Of a DNA stretch of 64,000 nt, positions 2,757 through 27,691 are shown one piece after another; within the stretch, counting starts at the first letter, position 1, and every line of letters starts with the position of its first letter. Location of the stretch: positions 124,001 to 188,000 of the forward strand of contig NZ_QWJJ01000003.1 of NCBI RefSeq assembly GCF_003575965.1. The letters run 5' to 3'. This DNA is from Pseudooceanicola sediminis. GTDB lineage: Bacteria > Pseudomonadota > Alphaproteobacteria > Rhodobacterales > Rhodobacteraceae. The notes under the pieces were generated by a model. The model was not told the DNA's origin, ran no database searches, and saw only the letters and a program-made list of their open reading frames with translations. A program made the position numbers and the translations under genes.

Positions 2757-2832
2757 GGTCTTTTCTCCTTCGATGGTAAGGGAGCAATGACCTGCACGAA
2801 TGTGCTGCCTGCTTATACTCCGGTGGGTATTC

Positions 2833-9872: not shown

Positions 9873-11255
9873 ATGAACGATCTTTCAAATTCCCTTGCCG
9901 CGGCGGACATCGCCCATTCGATGCACCCCTACACCAACATGCGCGCACATGAGCAGCAGGGGCCGATGATCATCACGCGCGGCAGCGGCATTCATGTCTA
10001 CGACACCAACGGCAAGGAATATATCGAAGGCATGGCCGGGCTGTGGTCCGTCGCCGTCGGGTTTTCCGAACAGCGCCTCGTGGATGCCGCGACGAAGCAG
10101 ATGCAGGAACTGCCTTATTACCATACCTTTGCGCACAAGGCGCATGAGCCGCAGATCCGTCTGGCCGAAAAGCTGGCCGAGATGACGCCGGCCAACCTGA
10201 CCAAGTGCTTTTTCACCAATTCCGGATCCGAGGCGAACGATACCGTCGTCAAGATGGTCTGGTACATGAACAACGCCCTTGGCCGCCCCGAAAAGAAAAA
10301 GTTCCTTGCCCGCAACAAGGGCTACCACGGCATCACCGTCGCTTCGGGGTCGCTGACCGGGCTGGCGGGCAACCACCGCGATTTCGACCTGCCCGCGATA
10401 CCCGTGACGCACCTGACCACGCCGCATTTCTGGCGCTATGGCCTGGACGGCGAATCCGAGGTCGAATTTACCGCCCGCCTGCTGAAAGAGGCCGAAGATA
10501 CGATCCTGGCCGAAGGCCCCGAAACCATCGGCGCCTTCATCGGTGAGCCGGTGATGGGCGCGGGCGGTGTCATGGTGCCGCCCGAAGGCTATTGGCCGGG
10601 CATCGCCGCATTGTGCAAGAAGTACGACATCCTACTGGTCGCGGACGAGGTGATCAATGGTTTCGGGCGTCTGGGCACGGCGTTCGGCTGTGAAAAATAC
10701 GGGTTCGAGCCTGACATCCTGGTGCTGTCGAAACAGATTTCGTCGTCCTACATGCCCCTCGCCGCGATCATGGTGACCGAAGAGGTCTATGGCGCCATCG
10801 CCGACAATACCGCCAAGCTGGGGTCGTTCGGTCATGGTTTCACGGGCTCCGGTCATCCGGTTGCCGCCGCCGTCGGTCTCGAAAACCTCAAGATCATCGA
10901 AGAGCGTGACCTGATCGGCAATGCGGCCCGCCTTGAGGAGCAGTTCCAGACGGGCCTGCGTCAATATTCCGATCACCCTCTGGTGGGCGAAGTGCGCGGC
11001 GTCGGCCTGATCGCCGGCCTCGAACTGGTGGCCGACAAGGCGACCAGGAAAAGCTTTGAACCGGCAGGCATGATGGCGGCCAAGGCCTCGGCCTTCTGCA
11101 CCGAAGAGGGGCTGATCTCGCGCTCTGTCTACGAAACGCTGGCATTGTGCCCGCCGCTGATCGTGACCGAAGACGATGTCGCTGAAATCATCCTGCGCAT
11201 GGGGCGCGGTCTCGACAGGACCTACGAGTGGGCCAAGGCCGAAGGGCTGGTCTGA
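9873..11255 (+). CDS. Class III PLP aminotransferase (omega-amino acid:pyruvate type)
   Basis: A 460-residue aminotransferase. The start at 9873 is set by AAGGAG at 9861-9866; the open frame upstream is not needed. Visible features are NSGSEAND (PLP-phosphate loop), YHG after NKG, and DEVINGFGRLG with the pyridine-N Asp. The PLP lysine lies in LSKQISSSYMPLAA. Family members use beta-alanine, GABA, taurine, putrescine or aromatic amines with pyruvate or 2-oxoglutarate. The substrate cannot be fixed here. A strong terminator follows, so it is probably monocistronic. Confidence 0.88.
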   Translation: MNDLSNSLAAADIAHSMHPYTNMRAHEQQGPMIITRGSGIHVYDTNGKEYIEGMAGLWSVAVGFSEQRLVDAATKQMQELPYYHTFAHKAHEPQIRLAEKLAEMTPANLTKCFFTNSGSEANDTVVKMVWYMNNALGRPEKKKFLARNKGYHGITVASGSLTGLAGNHRDFDLPAIPVTHLTTPHFWRYGLDGESEVEFTARLLKEAEDTILAEGPETIGAFIGEPVMGAGGVMVPPEGYWPGIAALCKKYDILLVADEVINGFGRLGTAFGCEKYGFEPDILVLSKQISSSYMPLAAIMVTEEVYGAIADNTAKLGSFGHGFTGSGHPVAAAVGLENLKIIEERDLIGNAARLEEQFQTGLRQYSDHPLVGEVRGVGLIAGLELVADKATRKSFEPAGMMAAKASAFCTEEGLISRSVYETLALCPPLIVTEDDVAEIILRMGRGLDRTYEWAKAEGLV

Positions 11256-11273
11256 GGCCGTCTGCTGCTGAGC

Positions 11274-11307
11274 ATGAAAGGCGCGGAGCAGTCCGCGCCT
11301 TTTTCAT
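11274..11307 (+). terminator. Rho-independent terminator of the aminotransferase gene
   Basis: A perfect 11-bp stem AAAGGCGCGGA/TCCGCGCCTTT with a GCAG loop ends in TTTTT at 11300-11304. It begins 22 bp after the TGA. Confidence 0.9.
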
Positions 11308-11962
11308 GTGGGGGCCTCCCGGCTGTGCCCATTTGTGCGCACGGCGTGCCGGGGCTGTCCTGTTTCGCGATGCCATGCCGGGCGCGGCATTTTCCGTGCC
11401 TTTCCCGCCCGGATACCGCATAGATACCGCCCAGATACCGACGTTGCGAACCAGCCCTTTTTGCCGCGCCTGAGCGGCGCCGTCAGTGCCCGGGTCACGG
11501 GGCAGGGCGGCTGTGTCGGGGCGGACATTCCGAAATCACAATACGGTCGTTCTGCACCTGCATGATTCCCGCCTGAGCGTCTCACTACAGATTTCACTTC
11601 CGTAATGTGGTCAGCCGATTTTCGCTGTTGCCGTGAATTGCGCGTGATCCTGGCATTCGTATCGGCGGAAAGCCGCCTGATTTTCGCTTTGCGCCCGCAG
11701 AATCCGCTGGCAGGGGCAGGGTGGATAGCGATATTTTGCCTGCTGGCAACCGCCCGGAATCACAGGATTTATCCTGCTCATGAGCCTCAGACGCAAAATT
11801 CTGCCTTTTGCGCATTGAACCATCGGCAAGTTTTCTGCGTTGCGGCAGGGAAGGTACGGCGAATGCTTGCCGTGGCGACCCGCCCGGATTGCCTCTGCTC
11901 GTCCGACGGGAAAATCTCGGACGATATCCCGTTTCGGGGAAAGCGCTTTTTGAGGATACCAT
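11308..11962. other. Long intergenic region upstream of opgG
   Basis: About 650 bp without a convincing gene. It contains GATACCG element copy B (11412-11446). It also contains an inverted repeat CAGGAT-TT-ATCCTG at 11763-11776 that abuts the palindrome CTCATGAG; this is a possible operator for the osmoregulated opg operon about 190 bp downstream. Weak open frames here lack ribosome-binding sites and recognisable sequence. Confidence 0.5.
11412..11446 (+). repeat. GATACCG phased-repeat element, copy B
   Basis: GATACCG at 11412, 11423 and 11434 (11-bp period), then ACGTTGC. As in copies C and D, the first unit is preceded by CGCCCG. The element lies between the aminotransferase terminator and the opgG leader. 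Confidence 0.75.
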
Positions 11963-17058: not shown

Positions 17059-17231
17059 CAACCGGGGCGCTGAAAAGGCGCCTCGCTTCTGTCACAAATC
17101 AGCTGTTGCTGGTGTCCTCGGGCATGTTGCGGGCGCGATTGCTGCCCGTTTAGCGAGCATTCAGTCGGTTTTACTCTGTTCGCGGGGCGTTAAACCTTGC
17201 CCGATGTCCGGCTTCGGTGCTGGTCTGAGGG
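17059..17231. other. Gap between opgC and the riboswitch
   Basis: 173 bp without a gene. A small hairpin GGCGC-TGAAAAG-GCGCC at 17066-17082 lies just after opgC and may end that operon, though no T-run follows. The promoter for the riboswitch-controlled operon must lie here; I cannot pick a clear -35/-10 pair. Confidence 0.35.
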
Positions 17232-17348
17232 GGCAGGGCACTTAGGGTTCCGCGGGCAAGACAGGCCCGGTCTGGTCCAAGAAGTGCCGCCCCCCGGCAA
17301 ATTCCGGTCAGGGTACACGGCGGGGCAAAATCCCGGGAGAGTACTGCG
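17232..17348 (+). promoter_or_regulatory. Guanidine-I riboswitch (ykkC class, subtype 1)
   Basis: All three conserved blocks of the ykkC aptamer are present in order. CTTAGGGTTCCG is at 17241-17252 and CTGGTCCAAGAAG at 17272-17284. The 3' block runs from ACGGCGGGGCAAAA (17317-17330) into TCCCGGGAGAG. A closing helix can form between GCAG near 17233 and CTGC near 17344. The aptamer ends about 80 nt before the start codon of a transporter operon. Guanidinium is the known ligand of this class and normally turns genes on. The downstream genes (importer, ureohydrolase) fit that role exactly. Confidence 0.93.
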
Positions 17349-17374
17349 CAGGTTGACCCGCGCCCTCTCTCATT

Positions 17375-17412
17375 CGTTCCGCCAGCGGGAAAACTCAAAA
17401 ATTGGCGGAACG
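17375..17412 (+). promoter_or_regulatory. Hairpin between guanidine aptamer and start codon (candidate expression platform)
   Basis: A perfect 10-bp stem CGTTCCGCCA/TGGCGGAACG with an 18-nt A-rich loop ends 4 nt before the GGGGAG ribosome-binding site. There is no U-run, so it is not a standard intrinsic terminator. Upstream, CCTCTCTC near 17364 could pair with the aptamer's 3' GGGAGAG, offering an alternative fold. This suggests translational or Rho-linked control, which is inference. Confidence 0.5.
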
Positions 17413-17429
17413 CGACGGGGAGCTTTAAC

Positions 17430-18545
17430 ATGCTGAAAAAGATGATCCTTTGCACGACCCGCTTTGCTAAGATCCGCCCGACTGCCCGCGTAGGGCTTGG
17501 TGTGGCCTGCGCGCTGACGCTTTCGCTGTGCGGGCCGGCGGCCATGGCCGAACAGAAAACCGATTTCAAACTGGCCTGGACGATTTACGCAGGCTGGATG
17601 CCCTGGGGGTATATCGAGACCTCTGGCATCATGGACAAATGGGCCGATAAATACGGTATTACCGTCGATATCGTCCAACTGAATGACTACGTCGAATCCA
17701 TCAACCAATATACCGCGGGCGCGTTCGATGGCGTGACAGCGACCAACATGGATGCACTCTCCATTCCCGCGGGTGGCGGTGTCGACTCGACCGCGTTGAT
17801 CGTCGGTGATTATTCCAACGGCAACGACGCGATCATCGTCAAGGGCGACGTGGGATTGGCGGATCTGGCGGGCAAATCTGTGAACCTGGTTGAACTTTCG
17901 GTGTCGCATTACCTGCTGGCCCGCGCGTTGGAACAGGTCGATCTGTCCGAAGCTGACCTCGGCGCGGTGATAAACACATCGGATGCCGACATGATTGCGG
18001 CCTTTCAGACCGACGATGTCGAGGTTGTCGTGACGTGGAACCCCCTTGTCTCGACCATTCTCGAAGATCCGGGCGCCACGAAGGTCTACGATTCCAGCGA
18101 TATCCCGGGCGAGATCATCGATTGCCTGTTCGTCAACACGGACACGTTGGCCGACAACCCCGCCTTCGGCAAGGCGGTCACGGGCGCATGGTATGAAACC
18201 ATGGCGCTGATGGCCTCCGGTACGCCCGAAGGTGACGCCGCGCTCAGTGAAATGGCCGAGGCATCGGGTACGGATCTGGAGGGTTACAAGAGCCAACTCG
18301 CCGCGACCGCGATGTTCTATACCCCAAAGGCCGCCATGGAATTTACCGAAGGGGCCTCCCTGCAAACCACAATGGTGTCAGTCGCCAACTTTCTGTTCGA
18401 CAAGGGGATCCTGGGCGAAGGCGCACCCTCGCCCGATTATGTGGGCGTTGCCTATCCCGACGGCGCGACGACGGGCGACGCAGGCAATGTGAACCTGCGC
18501 TACGACACGACCTATGTCGCGATGGCGGTCGACGGCACGCTTTGA
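17430..18545 (+). CDS. Guanidine/urea-carboxylase-type ABC transporter substrate-binding protein
   Basis: A 371-residue periplasmic protein of the NrtA/SsuA-like class, resembling the binding proteins of urea-carboxylase-related ABC transporters. A basic N terminus and hydrophobic stretch ending AAMAEQK form a Sec signal peptide. The mature part begins DFKLAWTIYAGWMPWGYIE, a Trp- and aromatic-rich segment that could cage a small cation. GGGGAG sits 7 nt before the ATG. It is the first gene behind a guanidine-I riboswitch, so guanidinium is the likely ligand. Direct binding is not shown by sequence. Confidence 0.85.
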   Translation: MLKKMILCTTRFAKIRPTARVGLGVACALTLSLCGPAAMAEQKTDFKLAWTIYAGWMPWGYIETSGIMDKWADKYGITVDIVQLNDYVESINQYTAGAFDGVTATNMDALSIPAGGGVDSTALIVGDYSNGNDAIIVKGDVGLADLAGKSVNLVELSVSHYLLARALEQVDLSEADLGAVINTSDADMIAAFQTDDVEVVVTWNPLVSTILEDPGATKVYDSSDIPGEIIDCLFVNTDTLADNPAFGKAVTGAWYETMALMASGTPEGDAALSEMAEASGTDLEGYKSQLAATAMFYTPKAAMEFTEGASLQTTMVSVANFLFDKGILGEGAPSPDYVGVAYPDGATTGDAGNVNLRYDTTYVAMAVDGTL

Positions 18546-18626
18546 TCCCGCAGGCCCACCCTGCGCCGTGCGGCAAGGGTCGCACCGGCGCAGGGGTCTT
18601 TCCGTCTTGCCAGCCCGAGGGTCGCC

Positions 18627-19439
18627 ATGCGTCTGATCAACCGGAAACCCGGCCGCGCCGCCTCTGCCGCGCTTGTGCTGCTGCCCTTTGCGGCGGTGGC
18701 CCTGACCTATGTCATCGCGTCTGACATCCGCCTGGCGGCCAATCCGGCGGACAAGCTGTTGCCGGCACCGTCGCATATCCTTGAAACGGCTCAGCGGCTG
18801 TTCACCGAAGGGGACAAGCGGTCGGGGCGCATCCTGCTATGGCACGACACCCTGGCCTCGCTTAGGCGGCTTGCATTCGGCGTCGGCATCGCCTCGCTCT
18901 CGGCGCTTGTCCTCGGGATGGCGATCGGGCTGCTGCCCTATGCCCGGCGCACCTTCAACAGCTTTATCGGTGTGGTCTCGATGGTGCCGCCGCTGGCCGT
19001 TCTACCGATCCTTTTCATCATTTTCGGGCTGGGCGAAACCGCAAAGGTGGCGCTGATCGTCGTCGGGATCACACCGGTGATGATCCGCGACCTGGCCAAT
19101 CGGACGCTGGAAATCCCGCACGAGATGATCGTCAAGGCCGAAACCCTCGGTGCGTCCTCTCTGGTCATCGCCCTGCGGGTGGTGCTGCCGCAAATCCTGC
19201 CGCGCCTGATCTCTTCGATCCGGCTGGCGCTCGGTCCTGCCTGGCTGTTCCTTATCGCAGCGGAGGCGATAGCCGCCGAACTTGGCCTCGGGTATCGCAT
19301 CTTCCTCGTGCGCCGCTACCTCGCCATGGACGTGATCCTGACCTACGTGATCTGGATCACCCTGCTGGCCTTCGTGATGGACTATGCCTTGCGCCTGCTG
19401 TCACGGCGATTGTTCCCGTGGACGGGGGCATCGCTATGA
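18627..19439 (+). CDS. Guanidine-operon ABC transporter permease
   Basis: A 270-residue inner-membrane permease of the BPD_transp_1 family with about six hydrophobic segments. An EAA-type loop (KAETLGASSLVIALRVVLPQ) contacts the ATPase. It follows the binding-protein gene by 81 bp and overlaps the ATPase start by 4 bp (ATGA). The gene belongs to the riboswitch-controlled operon; homologues occur in urea-carboxylase/guanidine loci. Confidence 0.9.
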   Translation: MRLINRKPGRAASAALVLLPFAAVALTYVIASDIRLAANPADKLLPAPSHILETAQRLFTEGDKRSGRILLWHDTLASLRRLAFGVGIASLSALVLGMAIGLLPYARRTFNSFIGVVSMVPPLAVLPILFIIFGLGETAKVALIVVGITPVMIRDLANRTLEIPHEMIVKAETLGASSLVIALRVVLPQILPRLISSIRLALGPAWLFLIAAEAIAAELGLGYRIFLVRRYLAMDVILTYVIWITLLAFVMDYALRLLSRRLFPWTGASL

Positions 19440-20215
19440 GCTTCGTCCAGGTGCGCAACGTCTTTCAAACCTACGGCGCCCGCCCGATCCTGGAACGCGT
19501 GAACCTGGATGTGGACGAGGGCGAGTTCGTCTCGATCGTCGGGGCCTCTGGGTGCGGCAAGTCGACCTTTCTGCGGCTGCTTCTGGCGCAGGAGACCCCG
19601 TCGCGCGGTGCCATCAGGATCGACGGCAACCAGCCGGCGGAAGAGCCGGGGCGCGAAAGGGGCGTGGTCTTTCAGCGCTATTCCGTGTTTCCCCATATGA
19701 CCGTGCGCGAAAATATCGTGGCAGGCGAAAGCTTTGCGCGCCCGCCGGGCCGCTTTTTCGGGGCGGCCCGAAAGGCCGCGCAGGCGCGGGCCGATGAAAC
19801 GCTGGACCGTATCGGCCTCTCGCATGTGGCGGGCGCCTATCCCGCTACCCTGTCCGGGGGGATGCAGCAGCGCCTTGCGATAGGGCAGGCGCTGGTGGCC
19901 CGTCCGCGCATCCTCCTGCTCGACGAACCTTTCGGCGCGCTCGATCCCGGCACCCGCCTGCACATGCACGATTTCCTGATGGAGCTGCGCCGCCAAACCG
20001 GCATGACCGTCTTCATGGTCACCCATGACCTCGAGGAAGGTTTCAAGCTGGGCGACCGGGTCCTGGTTTTCGACAAGACACGCTGGGACCCGGACTATCC
20101 GGACAGCTACGGTGCCACGATCACCTACGATTTCGATGCCCGCAACAACGGCATCCCGTTTCAGACCCCTACGACCCCGGACCTATTGGAGGACCCCCAT
20201 GTTCTTTCCGCATGA
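19436..20215 (+). CDS. Guanidine-operon ABC transporter ATP-binding protein
   Basis: A 259-residue ATPase. Walker A is GASGCGKST, the signature LSGGMQQRLAIGQAL, Walker B ILLLDEPFGALD, and the switch His lies in MVTHDLEEG. The C terminus carries an extra ~45 residues (TRWDPDYPDSYGATITYDF) after the core, typical of urea-carboxylase-linked transporter ATPases. The ATG overlaps the permease stop; its own end overlaps the ureohydrolase start by 17 bp. Confidence 0.9.
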   Translation: MSFVQVRNVFQTYGARPILERVNLDVDEGEFVSIVGASGCGKSTFLRLLLAQETPSRGAIRIDGNQPAEEPGRERGVVFQRYSVFPHMTVRENIVAGESFARPPGRFFGAARKAAQARADETLDRIGLSHVAGAYPATLSGGMQQRLAIGQALVARPRILLLDEPFGALDPGTRLHMHDFLMELRRQTGMTVFMVTHDLEEGFKLGDRVLVFDKTRWDPDYPDSYGATITYDFDARNNGIPFQTPTTPDLLEDPHVLSA

Positions 20216-21440
20216 GCGACGCCGCTCGCATCATCCCGCAGACCTGCACCGCGACGACAGGCGCTTTCACCATCCCGATCTGACCAAGCTGGGCGGGTGG
20301 CGCGCCATGCAGAAGGAAGCCGAGATTCCCGGCACCCGTTGGGAACAGGAACGCCAGTGGGCGTTGCGCATGGGCCTGACCGGGGCCGACAGCATCGATG
20401 ACAAGTCGATCCCCACCTTTGCCCGCGGTGAGCTGCCCCACTACGCCGGTATCAACACATTTCTCAAAGCGCCCTATGCCGAAGACGTTCTGGAGGTCGC
20501 CAATTACGACGCCACCGTGCTGGGAATTCCTTTCGACGGCGGCACGACATATCGCCCGGGAACGCGTTTCGGCCCACAGGGGCTGCGCAAGATCTCGGCG
20601 CTCTATACGCCGTACAACTACGAACTCGGGGTCGATCTTCGCGAACAGATGACCCTGTGCGACGCGGGAGACGTCTTTACCATCCCGGCGAACCTGGAAA
20701 AAAGCTTCGATCAGATCTCCCGCGCTGTCAGCCACGTCTTCTCCAGCGGCTCGCTGCCCATCATGATCGGTGGCGATCACTCCATCGGCTTTCCCTGCGT
20801 GCGCGGCATAGCCGAGTGCACGTCGAAAAAGATCGGGATCGTCCACTTTGATCGGCACGCGGATATCCAGGAAAAGGACCTGGACGAACGGATGCACACG
20901 ACACCCTGGTTTCACGCCACCAACATGCCCAATGTCCCGGCCAAGAACCTGGTTCAGGTCGGCATAGGTGGCTGGCAGGTGCCGCGTGACGCGGTCAAGG
21001 TCGCGCGCGACCGCGAAACCAACATCATCACCATGGGCGACATGGAAAAGATGGGCATCGACAGGACCGCCGAAATGGCGCTGGAAATGGCTTGGGACGG
21101 GGTCGACATGGTCTACATGTCCTTCGACATCGACTCGATCGACTGTGGCTTCGTGCCCGGCACCGGCTGGCCCGAACCGGGTGGGTTCCTGCCGCGCGAG
21201 GCGTTGGCGCTGGCCTCCAAGGTTGCGGCCGAAGGCATCTGCGGAATGGAGCTGGTCGAGGTTTCGCCACCCTACGACACCTCGGACATCACTGCGCTGA
21301 TGGGCACCCGCGTCATCGTCGACGTGCTTGGCTCCATGGTCTCGGCAGGGACCCTGGGCAACCACAAGCGCCACATCGACAAGCCCGTTGCCATTCCGCA
21401 CGGCGAATTCACCGGCAAGAGGTGGTCCAATGCCACATGA
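20199..21440 (+). CDS. Ureohydrolase, probable Ni-dependent guanidine hydrolase (GdmH-like)
   Basis: A 413-residue arginase/agmatinase-fold enzyme. Metal ligands are GGDHS (H194), DRHAD (D218, H220, D222) and SFDIDSID (D310, D312). PGTGWPEPGG has Trp324 where agmatinases usually have Thr. An unusually long ~85-residue N-terminal extension starts with a His/Arg-rich tract (HERRRSHH..HR..RRFHH). The ATG at 20199 follows TTGGAGGA. Cyanobacterial GdmH, a Ni-dependent guanidine hydrolase, shares the FDRH motif and the long N terminus as I recall them. The guanidine riboswitch and transporter support guanidine to urea plus ammonia. Agmatinase or another guanidino-acid hydrolase is the main alternative. 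Confidence 0.82.
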   Translation: MFFPHERRRSHHPADLHRDDRRFHHPDLTKLGGWRAMQKEAEIPGTRWEQERQWALRMGLTGADSIDDKSIPTFARGELPHYAGINTFLKAPYAEDVLEVANYDATVLGIPFDGGTTYRPGTRFGPQGLRKISALYTPYNYELGVDLREQMTLCDAGDVFTIPANLEKSFDQISRAVSHVFSSGSLPIMIGGDHSIGFPCVRGIAECTSKKIGIVHFDRHADIQEKDLDERMHTTPWFHATNMPNVPAKNLVQVGIGGWQVPRDAVKVARDRETNIITMGDMEKMGIDRTAEMALEMAWDGVDMVYMSFDIDSIDCGFVPGTGWPEPGGFLPREALALASKVAAEGICGMELVEVSPPYDTSDITALMGTRVIVDVLGSMVSAGTLGNHKRHIDKPVAIPHGEFTGKRWSNAT

Positions 21441-21903
21441 TCATCCCCACCACCACCACGGGCACCACGACGACCACCACCACGACCACACGCATGGACA
21501 CGATCATCGTCCGCCCGCTCAGGGCCATAATGGGGCCCATGCACACCATCTGCATTCCCACGCAAAACCCGAAGATGACGCGGCAGACCTTCAGGTCCTG
21601 ACGGCACAGTTCATCGACGGCTTCGTCACAGCCGCCGACAAGGCGAGTTACCTGAAACTCGCCGGGGTGCCGCTGGAACGGGCAGGGCAGGGCGGTGAAA
21701 CGGCCCTCAAGCTGGTGGATATCGAACTCAAGACCGAATGGCAGGTCGGGACGGCCTCGCCGTCCTTCGGATCGCGCGAACTCAGCTATCTGCCGTTTCC
21801 CGGCCAGATGGTGCGGGAACGGACCAACATGTCGCTGGTCTATGTTTCGTCCAGCGAAAAGGTGCTCTGGGATATCCGCGATTTCCTGCGCGAACGCCTC
21901 TAG
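21430..21903 (+). CDS. His-rich protein, candidate nickel chaperone for the ureohydrolase
   Basis: A 157-residue protein. I count 21 His in residues 3-44 (for example PHDHPHHHHGHHDDHHHDH), then a compact ~105-residue domain ending SSEKVLWDIRDFLRERL that I do not recognise. The ATG at 21430 overlaps the ureohydrolase stop by 11 bp, with AGAGGTGG upstream, so it is made with that enzyme. Such His tracts store or deliver Ni(II), as in HypB and UreE. Known guanidine hydrolases need HypA/HypB-like helpers, and none is present here. I infer that this protein fills that role. It has no GTPase motif, no signal peptide and no membrane segment. Confidence 0.75.
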   Translation: MPHDHPHHHHGHHDDHHHDHTHGHDHRPPAQGHNGAHAHHLHSHAKPEDDAADLQVLTAQFIDGFVTAADKASYLKLAGVPLERAGQGGETALKLVDIELKTEWQVGTASPSFGSRELSYLPFPGQMVRERTNMSLVYVSSSEKVLWDIRDFLRERL

Positions 21904-22124: not shown

Positions 22125-22955
22125 ATGCAAGACATGGCGACCGAGACGAGCGGTATCGACTGGCAGGATGCCTTTGAAAACGCCCTCTATATTCCCGGTG
22201 CAGAACGCTATCCGCCGCGCTGGCAGTCACAGGCGGCGGCATTTCGGGAAACCTGGGTGAACGCCGACCTGGATGTGCGCTATGGGGATGGCGAACGAAC
22301 GCTCCTTGACCTGTTCCAACCACAGGGCACGCCACGGGGGCTTGCGGTGTTCGTTCATGGTGGCTTCTGGCACAAGTTCGACAAAAGCTGCTGGTCGCAT
22401 CTTGCGGCGGGTGCGCTGGCGCGCGGATGGGCGGTTGCGGTGCCGGGCTATACGCTGGCACCACAGGCGCGGATTTCCCAGATTACCGCCCAGGTTGGCA
22501 TGGCGTTGCAAGTGGCTGCGGCGCGGGTGTCGGGGCCAATCCGCCTTGCCGGGCATTCTGCGGGCGGTCACCTTGTCACCCGGATGGCCTGCATCAACGC
22601 GCCGCTGACGCCTTCGGTGGCGGCGCGGATCGACAAGATCACGTCGATTTCCGGTGTGCATGACCTGCGGCCGCTGCGCCTGCACCGGATGAACGACGTG
22701 CTGAACCTCGATGCGGCCGAGGCCCGCGCCGAAAGCCCGGCCCTGCGGGACCCGCGTCCCGACATGCGGCTGACGGCCTGGGTCGGGGGCAACGAACGCC
22801 CCGAATTCCTGCGCCAGACAGCGTTGCTGACCGAAGCCTGGCAGGAAGGCATCAACAGTTGCCAGCGGGTGATCGAAAACGACCGCAACCATTTCGACGT
22901 GATTGACGGGCTGGTCAGTGCGGACCATGCCCTGACCGAGGCATTCGTGGGCTGA
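22125..22955 (+). CDS. Alpha/beta hydrolase, kynurenine-formamidase-like
   Basis: A 276-residue alpha/beta hydrolase. HGGFW is the oxyanion motif of arylformamidase/carboxylesterase relatives, and GHSAGGH holds the nucleophile Ser. NDRNHFDVIDG near the C terminus supplies the catalytic His. Length fits arylformamidase (AFMID/KynB2-like). No tryptophan-degradation genes are nearby, so the amide or ester substrate is open. It lies 221 bp after the guanidine operon and 224 bp before a branched-chain-type ABC operon, and could belong with the latter. Confidence 0.78.
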   Translation: MQDMATETSGIDWQDAFENALYIPGAERYPPRWQSQAAAFRETWVNADLDVRYGDGERTLLDLFQPQGTPRGLAVFVHGGFWHKFDKSCWSHLAAGALARGWAVAVPGYTLAPQARISQITAQVGMALQVAAARVSGPIRLAGHSAGGHLVTRMACINAPLTPSVAARIDKITSISGVHDLRPLRLHRMNDVLNLDAAEARAESPALRDPRPDMRLTAWVGGNERPEFLRQTALLTEAWQEGINSCQRVIENDRNHFDVIDGLVSADHALTEAFVG

Positions 22956-23179
22956 CGTCCGGGCCGGTGCGCGCGCGAGAGAGAGAAGAGAGAGACCCTC
23001 TGGCCAGCCCAACATCGTGGCGGCGCGGCGCAAAGCGGCGGCATATCGGCGTAAACCGATGCGCCAGCGCGGCATCTGCGAAATTTCCCGACAAGACCCT
23101 TGCCAGCCAGAATCCTTCGTCGCCAAAGTGTGCCCATAGACAAAAGGGCGCAAAGCCCGATCCAACCGGGAGTGATGAG

Positions 23180-24337
23180 ATGACACGGAACCTGACCTTG
23201 GCCGCGGCCCTGATGCTGACCGCCGCCGCCCCTGCGCTTGCCCAGGATACCACGCTCAAGATCGGCGTGCTGGTGACGCTTTCCGGCCCCCCTGCCGTGC
23301 TGGGCGAACATGCCCGTGATGGCGCGTTGCTCGCGGTCGAGGAACTGGGCATGGTCGGCGGCCTCAAGACCGAGGTTTTCGTGGTAGACGCCGAAGGCAA
23401 ACCGGATGTCGCCGCGCAAAAGGCCCGCGAGCTGGTGGAGCGGGACGATGTCGATTTCGTCGTCGGCCCGATCTTTTCCAACGTGCTGAACGCCATCGCC
23501 GGGCCGATCACCGAAGAGGCGTTTCTTGTCAGTCCAAACGCTGGCCCTTCCAGCTTCGCCGGCGAGGGCTGCAATCCAAACCTCTTCGTCGTTTCCTACC
23601 AGAACGACCAGATGCCGACGGTTCTGGCGGAACAGATGAACAAGGATGGCGTTGGCTCTGCCTTCATCCTCGCCCCGAACTACCAGGCGGGCAAGGACAG
23701 CCTCAATGGCTTCAAGACCGTCTTCAAGGGCGATGTCGCCTCCGAACTCTACGTCCCGCTTGGCCAGCTCGACTATTCCGCCGAACTGGCGCAGATCGCC
23801 GCGATGCAGCCCGAGGCGGTCTATGCCTTTCTGCCCGGTGGCATGGGCGTGAACTTCGTCAAGCAATACGAACAGGCCGGGCTGAAGACGATCCCGCTGC
23901 TGACCGCCTTTACCGTCGATGAAACGACGCTGCCCGCCGAACAGGACGCGGCGGTCGGCATGTTGTCGGGCACCAACTGGGCCCCCGATCTCGACAATGC
24001 CGCCAATACCGCCTTCGTTTCCAGCTTCGAGGCAGCCTATGGCTATGTGCCTGCCCTCTATGCCGCGGGCGGATATGACGCGATCAAGCTGATCGACAGC
24101 GCGGTCAAGGCGACCGGTGGCGACCTGGCGGACAAGGACGCATTGCGCAGCGCCCTGATGGCGGCGGATTTCACCTCTGTTCGTGGCAAGTTCTCGTTTT
24201 CTGCCAACCACTTCCCGGTGCAGGATTTCTACCTCGCCAAGGCCATCAAGCGTGAGGATGGTAAATACGCCACCTCGATCGTCGAGACGGTCTTTTCCAA
24301 CTACGCCGACGCCTATGTCGACCAGTGCAAGATGTGA
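23180..24337 (+). CDS. Branched-chain-amino-acid-type ABC binding protein (set 1)
   Basis: A 385-residue Peripla_BP_6 protein. MTRNLTLAAALMLTAAAPALAQ is a clear signal peptide; the mature protein opens TTLKIGVLVTLSGPPAVLGE, the LivJ-type first strand. The ATG at 23180 has GGGAG upstream; the frame is open earlier but the sequence there is not protein-like. It heads a complete LivHMGF-type importer. This subfamily carries amides, aromatic acids and short-chain compounds as well as amino acids, so the ligand is open. Confidence 0.9.
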   Translation: MTRNLTLAAALMLTAAAPALAQDTTLKIGVLVTLSGPPAVLGEHARDGALLAVEELGMVGGLKTEVFVVDAEGKPDVAAQKARELVERDDVDFVVGPIFSNVLNAIAGPITEEAFLVSPNAGPSSFAGEGCNPNLFVVSYQNDQMPTVLAEQMNKDGVGSAFILAPNYQAGKDSLNGFKTVFKGDVASELYVPLGQLDYSAELAQIAAMQPEAVYAFLPGGMGVNFVKQYEQAGLKTIPLLTAFTVDETTLPAEQDAAVGMLSGTNWAPDLDNAANTAFVSSFEAAYGYVPALYAAGGYDAIKLIDSAVKATGGDLADKDALRSALMAADFTSVRGKFSFSANHFPVQDFYLAKAIKREDGKYATSIVETVFSNYADAYVDQCKM

Positions 24338-24375
24338 TCTGGCGGACGTATCCGACGGACTGAAAGGCGCCGACC

Positions 24376-25299
24376 GTGTTCAACCTCTTCGTGCTGCAAC
24401 TGCTCAACGGGGCGCAGTTCGGAATCCTCCTGTTCCTGGTGGCGGCGGGGCTGACCCTCGTCTTCGGGATCATGGATTTCATCAACCTCGCCCACGGGGT
24501 TCTCTACATGGTCGGTGCCTACCTGATGGCGATGCTGTCGGCCCTGACCGGCAGTTTCTGGGGCGGGCTGCTGCTGGCCTTGCCGGCGACGCTGGTGTTC
24601 GGGCTGGTGCTTGAGTTCCTGGTGTTCAGGCGGCTCTATGACCGTTCCCACCTCGACCAGGTGCTGGCCACCTTCGGCCTGGTCATGATCCTGTCGGAAG
24701 GGGTCAAGATCATCTGGGGTGCCGCGCCGCTCAGCGTGTCGATGCCGGACGTGCTGTCGGGATCGATCCCCTTGCTGGGGCCGCTGCGCTATCCGGTCTA
24801 TCGCCTTGCGGTGATTGCGGCAGGGCTTGCCTCGGCGGTCGGCCTCTGGGCACTGATCAACCACACGCGGGCGGGGATGCTGCTGCGCGCAGGGGCCTCG
24901 AACCGCGCGATGGTTTCGGCCCTGGGCGTGGATATCTCGCGCCTGTTCATGCTGGTCTTCGCCTTTGGGGCGATGCTGGCGGGCTTTGCCGGTGCCATCG
25001 TCGCGCCGATCCTGTCCGTCGATCCGGGCATGGGCGAAAGCATCCTGATCCTGACCTTCGTGGTGATCGTCATCGGCGGCGTCGGTTCTATCCGTGGCGC
25101 GTTTCTTGCAGCCCTTCTGGTGGGTGTCGTCGATACCGTCGGGCGCACTTTCGGTCCCATCCTGCTGCGGATGGTGATGGAGCCGGCGGCCGCGGCGCAA
25201 CTGGGGCGCACCCTTGCCCCGATGCTGGTCTACCTGCTGATGGCGGCGGTCCTGTTTTATTCCCCGACCGGCCTGTTCGGGCGCAAGGCGGCCAGATGA
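24376..25299 (+). CDS. LivH-type ABC permease (set 1)
   Basis: A 307-residue membrane permease with about eight hydrophobic segments and the LivH hallmark GLTLVFGIMDFINLAHG near residue 30. It starts with GTG. Its stop overlaps the LivM-type start by 4 bp. It forms the heterodimeric channel with the next gene product. Confidence 0.9.
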   Translation: MFNLFVLQLLNGAQFGILLFLVAAGLTLVFGIMDFINLAHGVLYMVGAYLMAMLSALTGSFWGGLLLALPATLVFGLVLEFLVFRRLYDRSHLDQVLATFGLVMILSEGVKIIWGAAPLSVSMPDVLSGSIPLLGPLRYPVYRLAVIAAGLASAVGLWALINHTRAGMLLRAGASNRAMVSALGVDISRLFMLVFAFGAMLAGFAGAIVAPILSVDPGMGESILILTFVVIVIGGVGSIRGAFLAALLVGVVDTVGRTFGPILLRMVMEPAAAAQLGRTLAPMLVYLLMAAVLFYSPTGLFGRKAAR

Positions 25300-26249
25300 A
25301 CCTGCGTCCACGCCTGATTGCCGCCCTCGCGATCTTCGTGGGCATGGCACTGGTGCCGCCTGTCGCCGCGGCCCTTGGTGACCCGTTTCTGACTGTCATT
25401 GCCAGCCGGATGCTGGTCTTTGCCATCGCCGCCCTGTCGCTCGACCTGATCCTCGGCTACGGCGCGATGGTCAGCTTCGGCCATGCCGCATATGTCGGGG
25501 TCGGTGCCTATGCCGTGGCGATCGGCGCGCGCTTCGGCGTCACGGACCTGCTGGCGCAGATGGCGCTCGGTGCACTGATGTCTGCTGCCTTCGCGCTGGT
25601 GACCGGCGCGATCAGCCTGCGCACCCGCGGCGTCTATTTCATCATGATCACGCTCGCCTTCGCGCAGATGGCGTTTTTCTTCTTTGTCTCGCAAAGCAGC
25701 CTTGGCGGCGACGATGGCGTGGCGCTGACCGCACGCTCGACCCTGTTGTCTACCGATGTCCTGGAAAGCGATATCGCCTTTTTCTACACGATCCTGGCCG
25801 TGCTGGTGTTGTGCTACGGGGGCCTCTACCGGCTGACCAATGCGCGCTTTGGCCGGGTCCTGACCGGCACACGGGAAAATCCGCTGCGTATGCAGGCCAT
25901 CGGCTACCGACCCTTTCCCTATCAGCTGACCGCCTATGTGATTGCCGCCTGCATCGCCTCGGTCGCGGGCGTCCTGCTGGCCAACCAGACGGAATACGTC
26001 TCGCCGGCCTATATGGCATGGTCCCGTTCCGGCGAACTGATCGTCATGCTTGTGCTGGGCGGTATCGGTACGCTGACCGGGGCGATGGCGGGCGCGCTGA
26101 TCACCGTGGGTCTGGAGCATACGTTCGCGGCGTGGTCCGAACACTGGCGCCTGGGCTTCGGGCTGCTGCTGGTCCTTGTCGTGCTGTTCTCGCCCGATGG
26201 CATCACAGGCCTTTTGAAACGGCTGGGGGTTGGGCCTCGCCATGACTGA
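25296..26249 (+). CDS. LivM-type ABC permease (set 1)
   Basis: A 317-residue permease with the LivM signature SLDLILGYGAMVSFGHAAYVG near residue 50 and a glycine-rich GGIGTLTGAMAGA segment near the C terminus. About nine membrane spans are visible. It overlaps both neighbours, by 4 bp with LivH and 8 bp with LivG. Confidence 0.9.
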   Translation: MNLRPRLIAALAIFVGMALVPPVAAALGDPFLTVIASRMLVFAIAALSLDLILGYGAMVSFGHAAYVGVGAYAVAIGARFGVTDLLAQMALGALMSAAFALVTGAISLRTRGVYFIMITLAFAQMAFFFFVSQSSLGGDDGVALTARSTLLSTDVLESDIAFFYTILAVLVLCYGGLYRLTNARFGRVLTGTRENPLRMQAIGYRPFPYQLTAYVIAACIASVAGVLLANQTEYVSPAYMAWSRSGELIVMLVLGGIGTLTGAMAGALITVGLEHTFAAWSEHWRLGFGLLLVLVVLFSPDGITGLLKRLGVGPRHD

Positions 26250-27001
26250 ACCGCTGTTGCAAGTCCGGGCATTGCGCAAATCCTTCGGCGCGCTTGCCGT
26301 CACCGATGATGTGTCGCTGTCGGTGACCGAGGGGGAACTGCATGCAATCATCGGGCCGAACGGCGCGGGAAAGACCACGCTGATTTCCCAGCTCTCGGGG
26401 CAGTTGGCACCGGACAGCGGCACGATTCTCTATGACGGTGCACCGATCACCCGGCTGGATATGGCCGCGCGCGTGCGCCGTGGCCTGGCGCGCAGTTTCC
26501 AGATCACGGCGTTGCTGCCGGGGATGAGCGTTCTGGAAAACGTCTCCCTTGCGGTGCAGGCCCGCAGCGGGTCGTCCTACCGTTTCTGGCGTCCCGTCGC
26601 GGATGACGCGGCATTGTCCCAGGAGGCGATGCAGGCGCTGGATGAGGTCGGTCTTGCCGACCGGGCACACCGTCCCGCCCGCGCCCTGTCGCACGGCGAA
26701 CAGCGCCAGTTGGAACTGGCTGTCGCCCTTGCCACCAAACCGCGCCTCTTGCTGCTGGATGAACCCCTGGCCGGCACCGGCGGGCAAGAGGCCGAGGTGC
26801 TGATCTCCCTGATGCGGCGCCTGAAAGACCGCCTGACGATCGTGTTGATCGAACATGACATGGGGGCTGTCTTTGCGCTGGCGGATCGCGTCTCGGTCCT
26901 TGTCTATGGACAGATCGCTGCCAGCGGCACCCCCGGCGATATCCGCGCCGACCCGAAGGTGCGCGCGGCCTATCTGGGCGAAGAGGAGGAGGGCACGCCA
27001 G

Positions 27002-27009
<8 letters not shown>
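26242..27009 (+). CDS. LivG-type ABC ATPase (set 1)
   Basis: A 255-residue ATPase. Walker A is GPNGAGKTT, the signature LSHGEQRQLELAVAL and Walker B LLLLDEPLAGTG. The H-loop is IEHDMGAVF. The ATG at 26242 lies inside the end of livM. The 3' end overlaps the LivF-type gene by 8 bp. Confidence 0.92.

Positions 27010-27691
<682 letters not shown>

What the first reader, a model, noticed from the sequence alone, without database searches (positions are those of the whole stretch)
17232..21903. Complete guanidine-responsive operon: riboswitch, importer, ureohydrolase and metal-handling protein
A ykkC/guanidine-I aptamer with all three conserved blocks precedes five coupled genes. Seen: the aptamer blocks, the ABC importer subunits, the arginase-fold metal motifs and the His-rich protein, with overlaps of 4, 17 and 11 bp between the last four genes. 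Established: guanidine-I riboswitches sense guanidinium, and Ni-dependent guanidine hydrolase (GdmH) is an arginase-family enzyme. Inferred: this bacterium imports guanidinium and hydrolyses it to urea and ammonia as a nitrogen source, instead of using urea/guanidine carboxylase.
Basis: partly seen in the sequence, partly recalled or inferred. Interest (0 to 1): 0.85.

Follow-up and report, generated by a model that had tools for sequence, protein, structure and literature searches.

The report
Guanidine operon with unnamed histidine-rich partner
This bacterium carries a guanidine-sensing operon for importing and splitting guanidine, and the enzyme's constant neighbour is an unnamed histidine-rich protein that may load its nickel in place of the usual helper proteins.

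Summary
A guanidine-I aptamer (RF00442, 78.4 bits, cut-off 63) precedes an ABC importer, an arginase-fold enzyme and a His-rich protein; overlaps are 4, 17 and 11 bp as stated. The enzyme's best solved relatives are the two characterised guanidinases (558 and 542 bits; next 178), and it keeps their specificity Thr and Trp and six metal ligands. The genome has urease and no urea/guanidine carboxylase over the curated cut-off. The guanidinase reading stands at sequence level.

The new part is the His-rich protein, unmatched in Pfam, NCBIfam or PDB sequences. In two taxonomic samples, 16 of 16 distinct gdmH genomes carry a relative directly downstream, as do 46 of 46 named relatives found from the protein itself. 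HypA, part of the known GdmH nickel-loading pair, was not found in 11 of those 16, this genome included. Most members begin MPHD or MH.. (start codons partly my choice), which after Met processing would put His at position 2, as in HypA's nickel-binding MHE. In 2 loci a HupE nickel-permease gene follows.

Most likely it is a GdmH-dedicated nickel accessory protein functionally replacing HypA/HypB; no metal binding or activity is shown. New variant of a known operon type, with an undescribed accessory family.

The parts
17231..17341 (+). Guanidine-I (ykkC) riboswitch aptamer
   Evidence: RF00442, 78.4 bits, E 2.9e-12
17375..17412 (+). Leader hairpin (11-bp arms 17375-17385 and 17402-17412); possible expression platform
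   Evidence: Found by stem scan; arm-like motifs by a loose regex in 31 of 44 leaders; paired arm changes read by eye, not scored. Function inferred
17417..17422 (+). Candidate Shine-Dalgarno GGGGAG, 7 nt before the SBP start
   Evidence: Sequence; pairs with an upstream CT-rich stretch in the fold of the leader alone
17430..18545 (+). Substrate-binding protein of ABC importer
   Evidence: TIGR03427 517.8 bits
18627..19439 (+). ABC permease
   Evidence: PF00528 66.6 bits
19436..20215 (+). ABC ATPase
   Evidence: PF00005 121.7 bits
20199..21440 (+). Guanidine hydrolase (GdmH) homologue
   Evidence: PF00491 258.7 bits; 558/542 bits to 7esr/9fek; T117, W324 and metal ligands H194, D218, H220, D222, D310, D312 present
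21430..21903 (+). Unnamed His-rich protein (157 aa, no Cys): His-rich N-terminal tail plus conserved core from about residue 47; proposed GdmH nickel accessory protein
   Evidence: No family match; next to gdmH in 46 of 46 named relatives and 16 of 16 sampled gdmH genomes

Best explanation
A guanidine-induced nitrogen-scavenging operon. Guanidinium binds the aptamer and turns on the leader, perhaps at translation, since terminator-like T runs are nearly absent from these leaders. The ABC importer brings guanidinium in, GdmH hydrolyses it to urea and ammonia, and urease elsewhere in the genome finishes the job. The last gene encodes a GdmH-dedicated accessory protein: a conserved core that probably docks on GdmH, an N-terminus of the form X-His-(Asp) that could hold a transferable Ni(II), and a variable His-rich tail acting as a metal reservoir. 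It would do in Alphaproteobacteria the job that HypA/HypB do for cyanobacterial GdmH. Shown by sequence: the parts, their order, homology and co-occurrence. Inferred: ligand response, import, catalysis, nickel binding, docking.
For: Riboswitch. GdmH nearest to both characterised guanidinases with diagnostic residues; the residue criterion is from PMC11410670 (passages). Urease alpha over cut-off in 11 of 11 genomes tested (five more gdmH genomes not tested). Accessory protein: in the class sample 11 of 385 genomes have gdmH and all 11 have it adjacent; in the phylum sample the 7 of 398 with gdmH are the 7 with it; union 16 of 16; naive hypergeometric 2e-18 and 3e-15, relatedness ignored. HypA not found in 11 of 16; HypB over cut-off in 2 of 11; those found lie on other contigs than gdmH. 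N-termini: MPHD in 51 of 63 distinct loci, MHDD/MHRG/MHGG/MAHD in 6 more. MPHD is kept in 21 loci where its codons lie outside gdmH, and in a member whose tail has 1 His (L100). HupE/UreJ gene next to it in S. fredii NGR234 and genome G532. HypA's MHE binds Ni(II) through the N-terminal amine, His2 and Glu3 (PMC7055735, passages).
Against: No experiment. His-rich tails can bind other cations, and tail His counts vary from 1 to over 20, so the tail cannot be essential everywhere. Comammox guanidinase has no chaperone in its region or genome (PMC11410670), so GdmH may not strictly need one. The N-terminal count rests on my start choice: 17 of the 51 MPHD loci have a further in-frame ATG upstream, though the two annotated records read start at the 11-bp-overlap position. 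Six of 63 loci do not clearly have His at mature position 2 (two MAPHD, one MADI, one unclear start, two needing an internal start). HupE adjacency is 2 of 70 sequences searched. Four Actinomycetota gdmH-like loci show no relative within 5 kb (tblastn with this protein).
Confidence: 0.65

Rival explanations
1. The His-rich protein is a stoichiometric structural or regulatory subunit of GdmH (as the second subunit of metformin hydrolase is), with the His tail incidental. (The rivals are not mutually exclusive, so the odds need not add to one.)
For: Some members have few His yet keep the core (L100, 1 His; L104, 4 His before the core). Metformin hydrolase, a GdmH relative, needs a second subunit (PMC11399263, passages).
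Against: N. inopinata guanidinase is a homohexamer resembling the Synechocystis enzyme when made in E. coli (PMC11410670). The His-rich protein has no ureohydrolase match. The conserved His residues and the two HupE neighbours point to metal.
Confidence: 0.2
2. General nickel buffer or storage protein (Hpn-like) induced with the operon; nickel insertion itself is spontaneous or borrows the urease accessory proteins UreE/UreG.
For: His-rich composition. Urease alpha in 11 of 11 genomes, and in all 11 a sub-threshold match to the HypB model (66-82 bits) on the urease contig, which I take to be UreG.
Against: A buffer would not need a conserved core of about 110 residues, nor occur only beside gdmH: in the class sample 4 of 15 profile matches lacked gdmH, two apparently operon remnants (G125, G365) and two weak (G083, G298); in the phylum sample 0 of 7 did.
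Confidence: 0.2
3. The enzyme acts mainly on a guanidino compound other than free guanidine, and the operon is for that.
For: N. inopinata guanidinase has a Km of 13.6 mM, and its authors raise this possibility (PMC11410670).
Against: Guanidine-I aptamer over cut-off in 13 of 16 gdmH genomes and the diagnostic Thr/Trp motifs in all 64 alphaproteobacterial loci checked, one of them a duplicate. For the N. inopinata enzyme the legend marks urea release as significant for guanidine and agmatine among the compounds tried.
Confidence: 0.08

Closest known systems
Synechocystis sll1077-1082 guanidine operon (GdmH with HypA/HypB)
   Same: Guanidine-I control, ABC importer, GdmH (66% identical, 235 of 356 aligned columns), Ni accessory function expected
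   Different: Accessory genes hypA/hypB (PMC8390497 passages; PMC12186494 passages) are replaced by one His-rich gene without detectable similarity to HypA
Comammox Nitrospira inopinata guanidinase locus
   Same: Guanidine-I control and guanidinase with the same diagnostic residues
   Different: APC permease, no ABC importer, no known chaperone (PMC11410670 passages)
HypA nickel chaperone
   Same: Working analogy only: His at N-terminal position 2 followed by an acidic residue
   Different: No sequence or profile similarity (hhalign probability 0.5%; no PF01155 match); no Cys, so no CXXC zinc site
His-rich nickel proteins (UreE tail, HypB tail, Hpn; recalled)
   Same: His-rich segment beside a nickel enzyme gene
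   Different: Core found no significant match in Pfam or PDB sequence searches

Membership tests
Guanidine-I riboswitch (RF00442) | Covariance-model score over gathering | tested here: met
   78.4 vs 63 bits, full length
Guanidine-I riboswitch (RF00442) | Binds guanidinium | not testable with these tools
   needs in-line probing
Ni-dependent guanidine hydrolase (GdmH) | Closest to characterised guanidinases within the ureohydrolases | tested here: met
   558 and 542 bits vs 178 for the next solved family
Ni-dependent guanidine hydrolase (GdmH) | Thr97 and Trp305 (Synechocystis numbering), T105/W313 in N. inopinata | tested here: met
   T117 and W324 (the PDB chain number is two higher than the paper's); criterion from PMC11410670
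Ni-dependent guanidine hydrolase (GdmH) | Six metal ligands (H182, D207, H209, D211, D299, D301 in N. inopinata) | tested here: met
   H194, D218, H220, D222, D310, D312, counted by hand on the 9fek alignment
Ni-dependent guanidine hydrolase (GdmH) | Hydrolyses guanidine, needs nickel | not testable with these tools
   enzyme assay needed
HypA (for the His-rich protein) | PF01155 homology | tested here: not met
   no match; hhalign probability 0.5% against four HypA
HypA (for the His-rich protein) | Two CXXC zinc motifs | tested here: not met
   no Cys in the protein
HypA (for the His-rich protein) | N-terminal amine plus His2 plus acidic residue 3 binding Ni(II) | tested here: inconclusive
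   after Met removal the N-terminus would read Pro-His-Asp; start, processing and binding untested

The most novel reading that the evidence does not exclude
The His-rich protein founds a new family of enzyme-dedicated nickel metallochaperones that arose independently of HypA, converged on an N-terminal X-His-Asp nickel site, and took over GdmH maturation from HypA/HypB in Alphaproteobacteria.
Probability: 0.45. Interest if true: 0.72.

Novelty: new variant of a known kind. Interest (0 to 1): 0.6.

Why it matters
How guanidinases get their nickel is open: GdmH was found to be activated by nickel chaperones (PMC11399263), while for comammox guanidinase the loading route is called unclear (PMC11410670). 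A small single-gene partner that tracks GdmH across the sampled Alphaproteobacteria makes the question testable by co-expression, and could be a tool for producing active guanidinases. If the operon works as predicted, guanidine use would extend to many Rhodobacterales and to Sinorhizobium fredii NGR234.

Tried and rejected
Homology of the His-rich protein to HypA: rejected. Homology to any solved protein by sequence: only chance-level hits. Pfam scan of the 47 members of A1: best 0.0049, to the ZIP transporter in 4 of 47, taken as a His-stretch artefact. Intrinsic terminator as the expression platform: a run of five T within 90 nt after the aptamer occurs in 1 of 44 leaders (L020; one search tested shorter cuts); the full leader is not unusually stable (z -1.2). 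Idea that MPHD is forced by overlap with the gdmH stop: rejected as the sole cause, as MPHD is kept in 21 loci where those codons lie outside gdmH. Idea that the hairpin mimics the aptamer's GUUCCG box: the arms differ in the Roseicyclus-type loci, dropped.
Full report
WHAT IS THERE. A guanidine-I aptamer lies at 17231-17341 (+), full length, 78.4 bits against a gathering score of 63; it is the only one found in the 4.44 Mb genome. Five genes follow on the same strand: a substrate-binding protein (TIGR03427, 517.8 bits), a permease (PF00528), an ATPase (PF00005), a ureohydrolase (PF00491, 258.7 bits) and a 157-residue His-rich protein.

THE ENZYME. Against PDB chain sequences the ureohydrolase's best matches are Synechocystis GdmH (7esr/7oi1, 558 bits) and Nitrospira inopinata guanidinase (9fek, 542 bits); the next, proclavaminate amidinohydrolase, scores 178. 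It is 66% identical to 7esr over the aligned columns (235 of 356). The two residues used in PMC11410670 to call a guanidinase (T97/W305 in Synechocystis, T105/W313 in N. inopinata; passages) are T117 and W324 here. The six metal ligands named there fall on H194, D218, H220, D222, D310 and D312 (counted by hand on the 9fek alignment). NCBIfam agmatinase, arginase and hutG models stay under their cut-offs. This genome has two further, weak ureohydrolase matches (151.7 and 52.8 bits). Urease alpha is over cut-off in 11 of 11 gdmH genomes tested, own included. The urea/guanidine carboxylase model TIGR02712 is over cut-off in 0 of 16. Against this: three of the 16 (G096, G197, G290) have neighbouring pieces that match the carboxylase, and the two later parts of the model, separately, so a split carboxylase-like system cannot be excluded there; the own genome shows biotin-carboxylase-type pieces and one 69.3-bit middle piece on different contigs; the list of matches was cut short by the tool.

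THE HIS-RICH PROTEIN. It matches no Pfam or NCBIfam family, and profiles of its relatives find only chance-level PDB hits. A pattern-based scan of one genome per species gave 46 named relatives, mostly Rhodobacterales by their genus names (recalled); in 46 of 46 gdmH is the neighbouring upstream gene. SBP was not found beside it in 2 of 46 (L011, L016), nor permease and ATPase in 1 (L016). The exact aptamer motif AGGGTTCCG lies upstream of the operon in 42 of 46; cmscan of five loci, four without a usable motif (L008, L016, L037, L040) plus L011, found the aptamer in L008, L011 and L037 but not in L016 or L040.

SAMPLES BY TAXONOMY. That scan started from the His-rich protein, so I also sampled by taxonomy. 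Class sample: 385 genomes; 11 have gdmH at E<=1e-100; 15 match the His-rich profile at E<=0.01, including all 11, with the match next to gdmH. The other four are G125 (a partial copy, no gdmH in the 16 kb read), G365 (joined to a truncated SBP, apparently an operon remnant), and G083 and G298 (weak, His-rich). Phylum sample: 398 genomes, sharing some with the first; 7 have gdmH, and the same 7, no others, match the wider profile at E<=0.001. Together 16 distinct gdmH genomes, all of the window's class, 16 with the partner directly downstream. In these searches only the best few first-look candidates per genome were scored, so absences are not proof. Fifteen of the 16 also have SBP, permease and ATPase in the same order; G460 does not (for 15 genomes, for the window). 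Aptamer over cut-off: 13 of 16; G335 has a sub-threshold one (41.1 bits) just upstream of its operon, none was found in G096 and G316, and G148's lies on another contig, perhaps a contig break. Naive hypergeometric values are 2e-18 and 3e-15, overstated because genomes are related.

NOT HypA/HypB. Guanidinase operons with hypA and hypB are described for Synechocystis and others (PMC8390497 passages; PMC12186494 passages), and related metformin hydrolase depends on them (PMC11399263 passages). Here HypA was not found in 11 of 16 gdmH genomes, including this one. In the five that have it, it lies on another contig; in the two I read (L075, L076) it sits among [NiFe]-hydrogenase or hyp genes (my reading of the translations). 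HypB is over cut-off in 2 of 11 (five not tested). So the usual pair cannot be what loads GdmH in most of these genomes.

ANATOMY AND A POSSIBLE MECHANISM. With starts as I chose them, 47 near relatives share invariant residues in the tail (H3, D4, H33, H42, S43, H44) and through the core (for example W104, G107, P111, P122, P124, Y138). In a chosen set of 25 that includes 13 further sequences (L051 onward, some trimmed), F61, G64, D70, L75, L95, G107, P111, Y120, P122, P124 and Y138 stay invariant. Tail His counts vary from 1 to more than 20, so the core must matter. At the start, 51 of 63 distinct loci read MPHD and 6 more MHDD, MHRG, MHGG or MAHD (one duplicate, L109 = L027, removed). Two read MAPHD, one MADI, one start is unclear, and two have MH.. 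only from an internal ATG. In 17 of the 51 an upstream in-frame ATG also exists, so the start is an assumption; the two annotated records read start the gene 11 bp before the gdmH end. By the usual rule for Met removal (recalled), MPHD becomes Pro-His-Asp and MH.. keeps Met, so His is residue 2. HypA binds Ni(II) through such an N-terminus, MHE (PMC7055735 passages). This is an analogy of ligands: the protein has no Cys and no profile similarity to HypA. In Sinorhizobium fredii NGR234 and genome G532 a HupE/UreJ nickel-permease homologue follows (PF04955); 68 of 70 sequences searched have none, although 11 of 16 gdmH genomes, own included, have one somewhere. I therefore favour a GdmH-specific nickel donor. 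A bound subunit or a nickel buffer remain possible.

CONTROL REGION. Between aptamer and SBP lies an 11-bp hairpin (17375-17412). Related leaders show paired changes in the arms (GTTCCGCC/GGCGGAAC here; GTTCTGCC/GGCAGAAC in L019; GTTCGGCC/GGTCGGAC in L006, L007, L009, L010, L028 and L032), and a GGGGA-type ribosome site often follows. A loose regex finds arm-like motifs in 31 of 44 leaders; the stem scan picked other stems in many loci. A run of five T within 90 nt after the aptamer occurs in 1 of 44, so translational control seems likelier than termination. This is inference; the paired changes were read by eye and not scored.

LIMITS. The alphaproteobacterial pattern says nothing about other phyla. 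Among 11 plasmid records with a gdmH-like gene I read the surroundings of 7. The four Actinomycetota ones show no relative of the His-rich protein within 5 kb by tblastn; of these, Embleya (L094) lacks the diagnostic Trp, and the Thr motif was not matched in L093 and L094, so some may not be guanidinases. In the held open library, searches listed no paper whose title or opening abstract describes a His-rich partner of guanidine hydrolase (listings read, passages of six papers); Funck et al. 2022 is not held and supplements were not readable, so prior mention cannot be excluded. In the two annotated plasmid records read with this operon, the gene downstream of gdmH is called 'hypothetical protein'.

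Noticed in passing
window 2777-2825 (-), with ORFs 2756-1761 and 1724-753 (-): A xanthine (NMT1) riboswitch (RF03054, 40 bits, cut-off 36) sits just before two tandem genes that look by eye like isopenicillin-N-synthase-type 2-oxoglutarate/Fe(II) dioxygenases, next to an amidohydrolase-like gene (4221-2833) that recalls 8-oxoguanine deaminase: possibly an oxidative purine route (no family search run).
   Followed up: partly
window 17375-17412 and relatives' leaders: A leader hairpin with paired changes between relatives and a nearby ribosome site suggests a translational expression platform for this guanidine-I riboswitch.
   Followed up: partly
L095 7758-8345 and L108 about 10849-11310: A HupE/UreJ nickel-permease homologue follows the His-rich gene in S. 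fredii NGR234 (plasmid pNGR234b) and in genome G532.
   Followed up: partly
L060 / L113 (genome G365): The His-rich homologue is joined to a truncated importer SBP with the genes between missing, and a His-rich stretch follows the core instead of preceding it; may be an operon remnant or an assembly join.
   Followed up: no
L095, L096, L124: The operon lies on plasmids or megaplasmids in S. fredii NGR234, Rhodobacteraceae SC52 and (by annotation and gene overlap only) Limimaricola variabilis, so it may spread horizontally.
   Followed up: no
genomes G096, G197, G290: Neighbouring genes match separate parts of the urea carboxylase model (biotin-carboxylase part plus two later parts), perhaps an oxoprolinase-type or split carboxylase cluster.
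   Followed up: no
window 22125-27691: Directly downstream lie an alpha/beta hydrolase gene and a branched-chain-type ABC transporter of unknown substrate.
   Followed up: no
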